Below are positions 16,701 through 22,700 of a stretch of 64,000 bases of DNA, piece after piece. The stretch's first letter is position 1; each line of letters starts with the position of its first letter. Below the pieces are notes generated by a model. It had not been told where the DNA came from, did no database searches, and saw only the letters and a program-made list of their open reading frames with translations. The translations under genes and the position numbers were made by a program. The stretch covers positions 11,947,768 through 12,011,767 of the forward strand of contig CM071586.1 in assembly GCA_036426205.1 (NCBI GenBank). The letters run 5' to 3'. The DNA comes from Ascaphus truei (lineage: Eukaryota; Chordata; Amphibia; Anura; Ascaphidae).

Positions 16701-19700
16701 TGGATCCAGCTCGGACAACCCAAACCCAGTCCCTGCTCATCTCTGAACTGAACCCAGTTCTAGTTGCATAGCAGCAGTAGAGAGCAAGACATCTGGAAGA
16801 ACCTTCCCCACCCCCTGTATATTCATGCCATACCCAGATGTTATACAACATCCCAGGCCAGGAGGAAATTGGAGCTATGAGCCCCCCTGAGAGAGACCTG
16901 CAGGAACGTGTCATCCCAGAGCAGTTAGCTGTGCCTGCTTTCTAAAGCACACTTGTGGCACCACTGAGGCAAAGACCTGATGATGATACATGGTATGCTG
17001 GGAATGCAGTAGGGAACATCCATCTTTATGTTATACCAATGGAAACTTTGGCAACATTTCGTAGAAACAGTGGAGGACCGCCGAATCGTTATGCCTCGCT
17101 AAACTTCAAACACCAAGTGAGTTTTGAGCAATATTCCGAGTGGTCCAAACAAGTCAACTATGACAGCTCCAGGGGTAAGAAGGCTATGCCCACCAATTTG
17201 AGAAGAGCCATTTTAGACAAGCTGAAGAAGCAGTTTAAACTCACTGCTGCACAATTCAAGATGGTCAAAGACCCAATCAATGCACTTTTACGGCATCAGA
17301 GGACTGTGGGCTGGAGTCATCCAAATGAAGAAGAATTCATGGATTGATTGAATAAATAATGTTTTTTTTAAAGTTTGTAATTTGATAAATACCGTTTTTT
17401 AAAATAGGTTTGAATTCAGTCATTTCTTGTAGTCGTTGTTTCATTCTTGTTTTCGTCCTTGTTTGGCAGGCTGATGAGCATCAGCACCATGTTCGTGTAA
17501 GAACAATTCCCGTGACACTTTAAGGTAATGTAATTGATGCATCTGTAACCCCGGTCTCTTTTCAGCCCCAGAGACCCCCCATGTAGCGCTCTGAGGCTCT
17601 ACGGCACACAAGGCTAGCGGGGGCCGCCATGACAGGTTGCGCGAGCGTGCGCGTTGGTCGCGCAGGTGCAGTAAGGGTAGCGCACGCAGTACCAATGCTA
17701 AAGAGGTCCTGAGTGGACTACAATTCCCAGCAGCCTCTGGGGATTGCCCTTTCACCCACATCACATGCAGCCAGCCAGCAAATAGGGTTTTGCAGCTTCT
17801 CCTGTGGAGGAAGGCTACAATGTTGCGGGGACCACGTTTGGCAGTTGAAGCTGGGAGCAGGAAGGGGGAGGAAGGGTGTAAGGAGCAAGTGGTTCCTGCA
17901 CCAGGTAAGGATCCCCAAATCCCAGGCAGGCCCCAATCCCTGTTAGGATAGTGGGTAGTACTGAGGGACAGCCCCTAGGTTAGGGACTCTGCCCTTAGGT
18001 GTGTGAGGGTGCAGGCTTGTCAGTGTCACGGCTGGTAGTGCTGTGAGCGCTGACAAGTAGGCACAGTGTATGCAGCGTGTGCTGTGTGTTTGCTGCAGGT
18101 TGACTGTGTGTGTGCAGTGTGTTTGCTGCAGGCGCTGTTAGTATTAGCTAGAGTCAGGACTGGGAAGAGTTAGGGGAGCGGAACAGGCTATTAACCCCTT
18201 AGGTCCCAGATAGGTCCTCACTCCCCAGTTTGTGGTGCTACAGGGACAGGCCCTAGGTTAGGGACCGGGTCACGTAGTGCCAGTGATAGATAGGGACACA
18301 GCGGATGCTGCGGTTCCTGTGAAGAGGTTTGGGCTCAAGTCGGGGCCCACAGAGACTATATCCAGGGTGAGATCGCCCTTGGCGGTCCTCGTGCAAAGAA
18401 CCCGTTTGGGATCAGACGGAATCACCGAGTGACGGATCCTTTGTGAAGCAGTTGCTGATCCGAGTACTGGAGTGCTCGGCAGGTACTTTACATCCACAAG
18501 TGCACCAACGGGCCCTTAGCTTAATAGTGACTGCGCAGTCACCCATATCCTCTCTCTGCAAGAGTGCGGGACATTGGGTGGGGATCCGAAGGACACTGGG
18601 TGGGATCACTCGGTGTTGGGGGAAGCGTTTTGTGAGACGCCTTGGTTATTAGTGTCTCCTCTGTAGAGGGACACCTGTTATTCTATTGTTGATATATGTG
18701 TGTATGTTCTCAAGTAAAAGGTATTGGTTATCATAAGGTGTTATATGTTTCTTGCCCCGGGGAATCTCACATCACGGGGATCCTGGTTAAGTGGAGGCGC
18801 TGCGCTAAGGAAATGTGTAAGTGTTACCCCAGGCTCCCAGCTAGCGGAGGCTCAGATCTCCTGGAGCCGCAGGTGTTATACAGTGACCAGTAGTTCCTTT
18901 GGGAGGGTTCAGAAAAAGGGCTACATTTGGAGGCGCTGCTGAGATATCAGACCTGGGGTGCCCTGTAATTTTTTTTCTAAATTGTGTTCTATTTTTGTTT
19001 CGCCATGGGGAAGCCCTCAAGGCGGAGGAGGCCACGTGCTGACTTCCTGGCCGCGCGGGAAAATGTTGCAACCAGTTATCCGGGACTGGCGGGAAAACCC
19101 GAGCCCCGCCCCCACAATAGGAGGGAGCACAGTGAGCAGCAAACAGTGATGTCTGTTCCCCCTAAGGAATGTACGAGATGCAGAGAAACACATCCCTGGC
19201 TGTATAGAGTCATACGGCCCCCACATTTAGTCTTGCCAATGGTAGTATGCCCGTGTGCGTTAAGAGACTGGAAGATGACTGGTGGCTGGACGGACGGGTC
19301 ACCTATGTTACCCATAGCGCTCACGACGACAGTGGTAGATGGGGAAGAATGCATGCACTGCTGCCTGAGCGAATGTGATTGCCCCGTCGGTGAATTGACC
19401 CGAGGGCCCAAGTGTCCTGACTGTGAGGCGCAGTTCCTGAAACCCAGACTGCCGCAGCCTACAGGACCTCCAGAGGGAGAGGGGGACACTGTTGAGGAAA
19501 CGGATTATTCTTCCCCCGAGAATGAGATAGACTGCCAGGGGTTACACCCTAATGTGTATGTGCCCTGGCCAGAGCCAGGAATAGATGGCTTTGTGCTAGT
19601 GTGCCCTTGCATTCAGGAAGCCCGTGCCAAGGGCGTCGACACATCCCAGTTCATGATAGACTGCAAGACAACCGAGGTGGACGGAGAACCGTGTACACAG

Positions 19701-22700
19701 TGTTTTATCCCCACCTGTGACTGTTCTAGAGGTGCACTGGCGTGGGAGCCCGAATGTGCCTGCTGCGGTGCATGTTTCTTAAAGCCTATTATACTCCAGC
19801 CTACGGACCCAGCCGGGAAAGAAGAGGAGGAGCCTGACCTCTCTACTAAAGTGAGATGCTGGTAATCAGTCTGTCCTAATTCCAGAGACCTCAGGGGACC
19901 CGTGTGTCCAGACCCATGTTGCAGACACGGTTCCAGACCCTCTCAAAGGGGACGTCCTAGTGGTAGAGCAGGAACCTCTGATGGTGGAACCCGTGGAGAA
20001 AGAGGCGCCTGATGTCTCGACCCCGGTGGTCAACGCCGCTGCTAGTCCACCTACCTCAGCTGTGGAGCATGTGGAGGGCCCGTGTGCCCAAATGGACATT
20101 CTAGACTCAGGTCCAGAGCCGGAGCCGCCGAAGGCAGAGTCACAGATGTTGGAACCCCAGATGTAGGTTCCAGACACGGTTCCCGAGCAGGAACCACAGA
20201 GCCCAGAACCGCCGATTCCGGAATCACAGGGTAAGGTGTCTATACCCCCATCCTCTTTTGGTGATTCCAGCGACCAATAACTCGTGGTGATGCACCTGCT
20301 GGTGGACCACTCGTGCCAAGTCACTGAGCCAACTATTTCAGCGGATGCAGAGCCTGCTGTGGGTCCGTGTGCCCTAGATGAAGTGTATCCAGATGCTGGT
20401 GCTTGCTCTGATGTGGGCTCGTGGGCCCTACTGTGGCCAGTCCGGCCTTCTACGATGGTACCAGGGGTCCCAGGCTTGGGATCAGTACCTGGTGACGACG
20501 ACAAGGGTGAGTTGACTGCCCCAGGGGTGTTGGGTGTGAGCCTCCAGGTGACCGCGGAGCACGGTAGCTTCTTAAGTCTGGACTCCAGGGCGAATGGCTC
20601 CACTCGGCATCACGTCCTGGCGGAGGTGTCTCCCTTAGAAGATAGCTGTCCAGTGGAGCGAGTGGACCCGTACCTACCGCCTATCGTCCAGGCGAGGATA
20701 ACCGCTCCTGATCTGAGTGTGAGCCCGTGTGCTCCAACCCAAGTGGTCCCAGGACTGGGATCCAACGTTCCAGAGGTTCCAGCAAGTAAGTGGACTGCCC
20801 CAGAAGTGCCGGGGACAGGTCCCGAGACAGCCAATGTGGGAACTGACAGCGTCCCCGAGGATCTGTTGGCCACCGTGAATCACGGCAGTGGTAAGGTATC
20901 TACCCTTTACCCCCTGCCGGGTGAACCCGAGACGGTGAGGAAAGAGACATTGTCCATTGCTCGCTTCCCCGTGGAAGCTTCGCCAGTTTGTAGGGACAAA
21001 GACTGTGTGAATAAGGATTCAGGGAAGGTTGCCTCCTTTAAGCCCAAAAAGGAGCGCTCCTTCACCATGTAGTGGACCGCGGGAAAGGTCCTGGTCTCCT
21101 GGCCTACCGTATCCATGCAGCGGATGGTCGGGTAAAGGCCTGGTTAAGAGACACTGTGCTATTCCTTCTACGAGGGGGAGGAAGTAGCACGGAACCGGTG
21201 ACTGTTACCCCAGAGCGTGCTCTACAAGAGATTTTTCTGGGGGAGGCTCACGGACGCCAAAGTGAGGTACCCCCACCTGATCAGTTAGGGGCACTCCACT
21301 ATGATACTCAGCTGGCCTCGGGTATCCACGTGATGATGTTGGGTACCAATGGGAAAATGCAAGTTTTGTGCGGTATGATTTATGCAATGCATTTTTCATT
21401 ATATAACTTTCTGTATGTTTGCTACCCAAGCGAGGTCGTTGGGATTCTACGAGGGGGAGAATGTAACACCAGTCTCTTTTCAGCCCCAGAGACCCCCCAT
21501 GTAGCGCTCCGAGGCTCTGCGGCACACCAGGCTAGCGGGGGCCACCATGACAGGTTGCGCGAGCGTGCGCGTTGGTCGCGCAGGCGCAGTAAGGGTAGTG
21601 CACGCGGTACCAATGCTAAAGAGGTCCTGAGTGGACTACAATTCCCAGCAGCCTGTGGGGATTGCCCTTTCACCCACATCACATGCAGCCAGCCAGCAAA
21701 TAGGGTTTTGCAGCTTCTCCTGTGGAGGAAAGCTACAATGTTACGGGGTAATGAAGGGTGTAAGGAGCAAGTGGCTCCTGCACCAGGTAAGGATCCCCAA
21801 GTCCCAGGCAGGCCCCAATCCCTGTTAGGGTAGTGGGTAGTACTGAGGGACAGCCCCTAGGTTAGGGACTTTGCCCTTAGGTGTGTGAGGGTGCAGGCTT
21901 GTCAGTGTCACGGCTGGTAGTGCTGTGAGCGCTGACAAGTAGGCACAGTGTGTGCAGCGTGTGCTATGTGTTGTTGCTGCAGGTTGACTGTGTGTGCAGT
22001 GTGTTTGCTGCAGGCGCTGTTAGTATTAGCTAGAGTCAGGACTGGGAAGAGTTAGGGGAGCGGAACAGGCTATTAACCCCTTAGGTCCCAGATAGGTCCT
22101 CACTCCCCAGTTTGTGGTGCTACAGGGACAGGCCCTAGGTTAGGGACCGGGTCACGTAGTGCCAGTGATAGATAGGGACGCTGCGGTTCCTGTGAAGAGG
22201 TTCGGGCTCAAGTCGGGGCCCACAGAGACTATATCCAGGGTGAGATCGCCCTTGGCGGTCCTCATGCAAAGAACCCGTTTGGGATCAGACGGAATCACCG
22301 AGTGACTGATCCTTTGTGAAGCATTTGCTGATCCGAGTACTGGAGTGCTCGGCAAGTACTTTACATCCACAAGTGCACCAACGGCCCTTAGCTTAATTTG
22401 ACTGCGCAGTCACCCATATCCTCTCTGTGCATTGGGGTGGATCCGAAGGACACTGGGTGGATCACTCGGTGTTGGGGGAAGCGTTTTGTGAGACGCCTTG
22501 GTTATTAGTGTCTCCTCTGTAGAGGGACACCTGTTTTCATTGTTGATATATGTGTGATTTTCGCAAGTAAAAGGTATTGGTTATCATAAGATGTTGTATG
22601 TTTCTTGCCCAGGGGAATCTCACATCACGGGGATCCTGGGTAAGTGGAGGTGCTGCGCTAAGGAAATGTGTAAGTGTTACCCCAGGCTCCCAGCTAGCGG

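What the first reader, a model, noticed from the sequence alone, without database searches (positions are those of the whole stretch)
19005..19865. Unrecognised two-module cysteine-rich protein encoded by an LTR element
Residues 82-153 and 200-267 repeat a pattern CPC ... DGE-x-C-x2-C ... CDC ... P-x-C ... FLKP-x4-QPT. The cysteine spacing is conserved while the rest diverges, as expected for metal-binding folds under selection. The N-terminus has a basic patch and a CxxC. I know no retroelement gag or accessory protein with this module.
Basis: partly seen in the sequence, partly recalled or inferred. Interest (0 to 1): 0.75.

Follow-up and report, generated by a model that had tools for sequence, protein, structure and literature searches.

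The report
Cysteine-module protein of pol-less retroelement
A jumping element in what is probably a tailed-frog genome carries, instead of the usual enzymes, a gene for a protein built from repeated cysteine-rich blocks for which no known family was found; it may be a metal-binding, gag-like protein, though this copy has lost part of its tail and its function is untested.

Summary
The ORF (19005-19865, 286 aa) holds two diverged copies of one cysteine/histidine module, larger than stated (residues 59-147 and 177-261). It lies in an LTR element: paired LTRs (97% identical outside gaps), CATC target-site duplication, 2.5 kb interior without recognised pol.

No significant match in Pfam, NCBIfam, PHROGs or PDB. 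Three protein searches found three relatives, all uncharacterised Ascaphus truei gene models. One carries a third kind of module.

Across eight module copies (two partial), six cysteines and a His-Pro are present in every copy covering them; four other cysteines vary. Between the two modules synonymous sites are saturated and replacement sites are not, which suggests constraint. Between close copies the evidence for constraint is weak or mixed.

Corrections: the ORF is the front of a longer protein (P0002 continues into a frame that is broken here), and the "N-terminal CxxC" includes module 1's first conserved cysteine.

Best reading: a non-autonomous, probably Ty3-like element whose one protein is gag-positioned and probably zinc-binding. 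Metal binding, RNA binding and trans-mobilisation are inferred. The host-genome search did not complete, so other copies and an autonomous partner were not surveyed.

The parts
17544..18925 (+). 5' LTR (TG...CA, 1382 bp)
   Evidence: Repeat pair; ends, 97.3% identity over 1314 ungapped columns, K2P 0.028, 13 gap events
21462..22778 (+). 3' LTR (1317 bp)
17540..17543 (.). target-site duplication CATC, left copy
   Evidence: flanks printed
22779..22782 (.). target-site duplication CATC, right copy
   Evidence: flanks printed
18928..18945 (+). putative primer-binding site TGGAGGCGCTGCTGAGAT; resembles the complement of a tRNA-Thr 3' end (tRNA recalled, from no call)
   Evidence: position next to the LTR; the tRNA assignment is from memory
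21450..21461 (+). putative polypurine tract CGAGGGGGAGAA just before the 3' LTR
19005..19865 (+). cysteine-module ORF, 286 aa, ATG in a gccATGG context, basic patch SRRRRPR at residues 5-11
19179..19445 (+). module 1 (residues 59-147): C-x3-HP ... CPC ... DGE-x-C-x2-C ... C-x-C ... P-x-C-x2-C-x3-FLKP
19533..19787 (+). module 2 (residues 177-261), same pattern
19866..21072 (+). broken continuation: Pro/Glu-rich tail in another frame, with in-frame stops at 20164-20166 and 20278-20280; 19987-20649 is 70% identical over 221 columns to the tail of P0002 (residues 385-587)
21057..21335 (+). further stretch matching the C-terminus of P0002 (45% over 93 columns); resembles the tail of Ty3-type integrases by eye and recall only, no Pfam hit

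Best explanation
The feature is the main recognisable coding region of a non-autonomous LTR retrotransposon (probably Ty3/Metaviridae-like) in a frog genome, probably Ascaphus truei. It encodes a gag-position protein: a short basic N-terminus, tandem cysteine/histidine modules and a Pro/Glu-rich tail; in this copy a change of frame and two stops cut off the tail. Shown: LTRs, target-site duplication, no recognised pol, module homology, invariant core cysteines, relatives that share the module and (P0002, partly P0003) the tail, signs of constraint between the modules. Inferred: each module folds around zinc (core ligands C, H, CPC, the first C of C-x-C, and C-x2-C); the basic patch and modules bind nucleic acid or a partner protein so that the element's own RNA is packaged or favoured in particles made by an autonomous element, which also supplies reverse transcriptase and integrase.
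For: Two LTRs with a CATC duplication. Interior of 2536 bp; none of the 29 open frames of 50 codons or more overlapping it has a significant Pfam match (list; scans; strongest hit MbeD_MobD at E 0.15). Modules homologous. Three of three relatives are Ascaphus truei models; P0002 matches the ORF and the tail beyond its stop, P0003 matches 56 columns of the tail at 68%. Six Cys and a His-Pro are present in every copy that covers them, of eight module copies. In the 44-codon ungapped block pS 0.92 against pN 0.32; 22 residues identical where 5000 neutral simulations reached at most 20. K2P 0.028 means a fairly recent insertion.
Against: No capsid, CCHC knuckle or pol was recognised, so 'gag-like' rests on position, basic patch and the relatives' layout. 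Window versus P0002 shows no excess of conservative replacements (310 of 400 neutral simulations did as well, 358 with fast CpG); for P0001 the signal is modest (2 of 400, 12 with fast CpG); for P0003 weaker (34 and 55). Cysteine retention between close copies is not significant in six of six comparisons. A codon-shuffle control with free local alignment gave the same third-position share as observed (388 of 899 at or above it), and the ungapped block was itself found by protein alignment, so part of the codon signal may come from that choice. DNA similarity between the modules is only borderline. No autonomous partner is known: the genome search did not complete.
Confidence: 0.5

Rival explanations
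1. Captured host gene: the modules come from a frog gene taken into an LTR element by transduction, as in maize Bs1 (recalled), and now ride along.
For: The modules match no known gag, and the element lacks recognised pol, as gene-capturing elements often do (recalled). P0001 and P0003 show a different N-terminus joined to the same modules.
Against: No host gene with the module was found outside Ascaphus truei in two searches with the modules, of about 5.8 billion proteins; the method needs shared 5-residue words and a similar length, so a fast-evolving gene could be missed. P0002 shares tail and C-terminal stretch with the window element, which fits an element family better than a host gene.
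Confidence: 0.2
2. Decaying passenger: the module once did something in an ancestral element, but the non-autonomous family spreads as RNA only and the protein is no longer needed.
For: Tail broken by a change of frame and two stops. Near-neutral replacement pattern against P0002. Variable cysteines, for example in P0001. Non-coding retroelements are known to move in trans (recalled).
Against: The module frame is open in the window; core cysteines are kept between strongly diverged modules; signs of constraint between the modules. The gene models are open by construction, so they are weak evidence.
Confidence: 0.25
3. The protein is a host-interaction factor, for example against silencing or restriction, rather than a structural gag part.
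For: Cys-rich modules without a recognised capsid; acidic tail. No direct evidence from any call.
Against: No match to any such factor in Pfam, NCBIfam or PDB sequences.
Confidence: 0.1

Closest known systems
Uncharacterised Ascaphus truei proteins LOC142486187 (P0001), LOC142493186 (P0002), LOC142488092 (P0003)
   Same: Same modules (P0001 57% identity over 89% of the query; P0002 77% over 165 columns) and, for P0002 and in part P0003, the same tail
   Different: P0002 has a third kind of module, only the back half of module 1, and a longer tail; P0001 and P0003 begin with another N-terminal stretch; P0003 has only most of module 2 and runs on into sequence with no match in the window
TR-GAG / LARD non-autonomous LTR elements (plants; papers seen as listings, definition recalled)
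   Same: LTRs, no pol, at most one gag-type protein, need a partner
   Different: TR-GAG elements keep a recognisable gag domain; here none is recognised, and the host is a vertebrate
Metaviridae with the PNMA-type N-terminal putative RNA-binding domain (RBD-CA-NC; PMC11011659, passages seen)
   Same: Present in amphibian elements according to that paper; the P0001 N-terminus resembles it by eye and recall and is modelled with strand-helix-strand-strand order at low confidence
   Different: No Pfam match for that N-terminus; the window copy lacks it; no CA or NC recognised
Retroviral/Ty3 nucleocapsid CCHC knuckle (pattern recalled)
   Same: Cys/His modules in tandem in a gag-position protein
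   Different: No C-x2-C-x4-H-x4-C; modules of 85-89 residues with six invariant Cys

Membership tests
Non-autonomous LTR retrotransposon | Paired LTRs with TG...CA ends and target-site duplication | tested here: met
Non-autonomous LTR retrotransposon | No protease, RT, RNase H or integrase between the LTRs | tested here: met
   29 of 29 open frames of 50 codons or more overlapping the interior scanned, no significant Pfam match; a short integrase-tail remnant is possible by eye at 21057-21335
Non-autonomous LTR retrotransposon | Moved in trans by an autonomous partner with matching LTR/PBS | not tested
   Genome search unanswered in 15 of 15 tries
TR-GAG | Recognisable gag/CA domain (recalled definition) | tested here: not met
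Ty3/Metaviridae | RT/integrase phylogeny and domain order | not testable with these tools
   No pol in the element
CCHC zinc knuckle | C-x2-C-x4-H-x4-C (recalled) | tested here: not met
   Absent on reading the protein; no Pfam match
PNMA-type RBD | Profile or fold match of the P0001 N-terminus | tested here: inconclusive
   No Pfam match; no homologue beyond P0001 and P0003; low-confidence model, best fold hit E 0.097 for the whole model
Any known zinc-binding family | Profile match | tested here: not met
   module profile against PDB: 5 hits, best E 0.25 (formylmethanofuran dehydrogenase subunit F, then Rieske), most likely cysteine chance matches
Zinc-binding domain (function) | Binds metal | not testable with these tools
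   Needs expression and metal analysis

The most novel reading that the evidence does not exclude
A previously undescribed metal-binding domain, born and multiplied inside one frog lineage's LTR elements, has taken the place of capsid and nucleocapsid as the only product of a pol-less element that hijacks other elements' particles.
Probability: 0.15. Interest if true: 0.7.

Novelty: new variant of a known kind. Interest (0 to 1): 0.4.

Why it matters
Non-autonomous LTR elements are usually thought of as RNA passengers. One that keeps a lineage-restricted, repeated cysteine domain under constraint would show how such elements gain or invent proteins to exploit a helper, and would add a new protein domain with testable metal and RNA binding.

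Tried and rejected
Known families: Pfam, NCBIfam, PHROGs and PDB sequences gave nothing significant; weak hits (NF047466 E 0.11 for 20281-21069, MbeD_MobD E 0.15 for 20723-20875, RXT2_N E 1.4 for P0003, five PDB hits from E 0.25 up) were taken as chance. NCBIfam was given only two frames, PHROGs only the seven rows of alignment A5; PADLOC was not used. Structure: both models are poor (pLDDT 47.7 and 40.0); fold search of the first gave E 1.4 at best (Ras-like fragments), of the second E 0.097 at best, so neither is used as evidence. Self-priming: no long complement of the primer site in the 5' LTR (best 8 bases). ARAGORN found no tRNA in the window. PNMA link: kept only as a lead. Viral contigs: no match for six peptide patterns of the window protein. 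Literature: eight answered searches, of which three lists were cut (20 of 45, 10 of 59, 10 of 52 shown); no listed title or abstract beginning names this element; Ascaphus with retrotransposon, LTR and gag gave 0 papers. Passages were seen of PMC11011659 (12 of 31 places) and PMC12822217; other papers only as listings with the start of the abstract.

Full report
What is there. The ORF at 19005-19865 encodes 286 residues with 24 cysteines. It sits in an LTR element: 5' LTR 17544-18925 and 3' LTR 21462-22778, 36 mismatches in 1314 ungapped columns (K2P 0.028) with 13 gap events, and a CATC target-site duplication. The interior is 2536 bp. All 29 open frames of 50 codons or more that overlap it were scanned against Pfam; none has a significant match, the strongest being E 0.15. 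A putative primer site starts at 18928; by recalled tRNA sequence it resembles a tRNA-Thr complement. A purine tract lies just before the 3' LTR.

The modules. Their local alignment scores 135, against a shuffle maximum of 70 in 5000; with every cysteine masked the score is still 55, reached by 1 of 5000 shuffles. So the similarity does not depend on cysteines alone. At the DNA level it is borderline (18, equal to the maximum of 500 shuffles), as expected for an old duplication.

Relatives. Three protein searches gave three relatives in all, each an uncharacterised Ascaphus truei gene model: one search found P0001; one search found P0002 and P0003 with P0001 as query, with the P0001 N-terminus only, found P0003. 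The window is therefore probably from Ascaphus truei or a close relative; this is an inference. The searches need shared 5-residue words and limit length, so distant relatives could be missed.

Beyond the stop. P0002 (760 aa) matches the window ORF at 77% over 165 columns and then continues at 70% over 221 columns into 19987-20649, which lies in another frame, with two in-frame stops there in the window; a third stretch at 21057-21335 matches its C-terminus at 45% over 93 columns. P0003 matches 56 columns of the tail at 68%. The window ORF is thus the front part of a longer protein. P0002 also has a third kind of module, 28% identical to the window's first, followed by only the back half of a module 1 and a whole module 2. 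P0001 and P0003 start with another N-terminal stretch, with no tblastn match in the window at E 0.001. By eye it resembles the PNMA-type putative RNA-binding domain reported in amphibian Metaviridae (PMC11011659, passages seen), but no profile match was found and the model is of low confidence.

Conservation. In eight module copies (two of them partial) the cysteines at alignment columns 3 (6 of 6), 27 and 29 (7 of 7), 69, 83 and 86 (8 of 8) and the His-Pro at 7-8 (6 of 6) are present in every copy that covers them; cysteines at columns 61 (5 of 7), 64 (6 of 8), 71 (7 of 8) and 85 (4 of 8) vary. Between different modules cysteine columns are kept better than others (9 of 13 against 23 of 78, p 0.008; 7 of 11 against 20 of 84, p 0.011; 7 of 12 against 23 of 79, p 0.05). 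Between close copies of the same module the difference is not significant in any of six comparisons (p 0.09 to 0.45).

Selection. Module 1 against module 2 at codon level: over 85 codons pS 0.87 and pN 0.42; in the 44-codon ungapped block pS 0.92 and pN 0.32, with 22 identical residues against a neutral maximum of 20 in 5000 simulations, and 29 third-position differences, reached by 2 of 5000. A control with codon-shuffled modules and free local alignment gave the same third-position share (388 of 899 at or above observed), so that share over the whole alignment is not evidence; the fixed-register block is better evidence, though it was picked by protein alignment. Against close copies, replacements are more conservative than neutral for P0001 (2 of 400 simulations as good, 12 with fast CpG), not clearly so for P0003 (34 and 55 of 400) and not for P0002 (310 and 358 of 400); cysteines kept were 17 of 18 for P0002 (18 and 57 of 400 as good), 17 of 23 for P0001 (93 and 170) and 8 of 11 for P0003 (98 and 153). 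This mix would fit source elements that are constrained and inserted copies that drift, but it does not prove it.

Function. The invariant set C-x3-H, CPC, C (of C-x-C) and C-x2-C suggests one or two zinc sites per module; this is inference. The low-confidence model gives both modules a similar order: strands, a helix after CPC and a hairpin with DGE at its turn. Fold searches were uninformative. I take the protein to be a gag-position, nucleic-acid- or partner-binding protein of a non-autonomous element, at about 0.5, with decay as passenger and host-gene capture as the main rivals.

Limits. The search of the window's own genome was busy in 15 of 15 tries, so there is no survey of copies and no autonomous partner. 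The three gene models may be chimeric predictions (P0003 runs on into sequence that does not match the window). No DNA of the relatives was available, so the tests against them use their protein letters only.

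Noticed in passing
46359-54803: A second LTR element: LTRs 46359-47862 and 53299-54803, 99.0% identical, a primer site like a tRNA-Leu complement (tRNA recalled), and long stop-free frames of 979 and 825 codons, of which the first has no Pfam match (the second was not scanned); it holds a 1.7 kb duplication (49273-50983 and 51660-53351, 94.7%).
   Followed up: partly
18792-18803: The first 12 bases of the primer-site motif (TGGAGGCGCTGC) also occur inside the 5' LTR, 136 bases before the primer site; possibly an older LTR boundary absorbed into the LTR.
   Followed up: no
21166-21180: A copy of the purine-rich motif TTCTACGAGGGGGAG found before the 3' LTR occurs 280 bases upstream of it; a second polypurine tract or an old junction.
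   Followed up: no
19866-20609: A 247-codon open frame on the minus strand over the broken tail, without a Pfam match; 61 of 2000 simulated regions reach that length in some frame, so probably composition.
   Followed up: yes
30736-32571: Frames that read by eye like remains of an ordinary Ty3-type element, with a CCHC-like gag end and RT-like stretches (not scanned).
   Followed up: no
39276-40343: A 355-codon C2H2 zinc-finger array, 11 fingers by eye, without a stop.
   Followed up: no
10380-10761, 26630-27277, 35910-36217, 42446-42759: Four palindromic stretches that match their own reverse complement, MITE-like.
   Followed up: no
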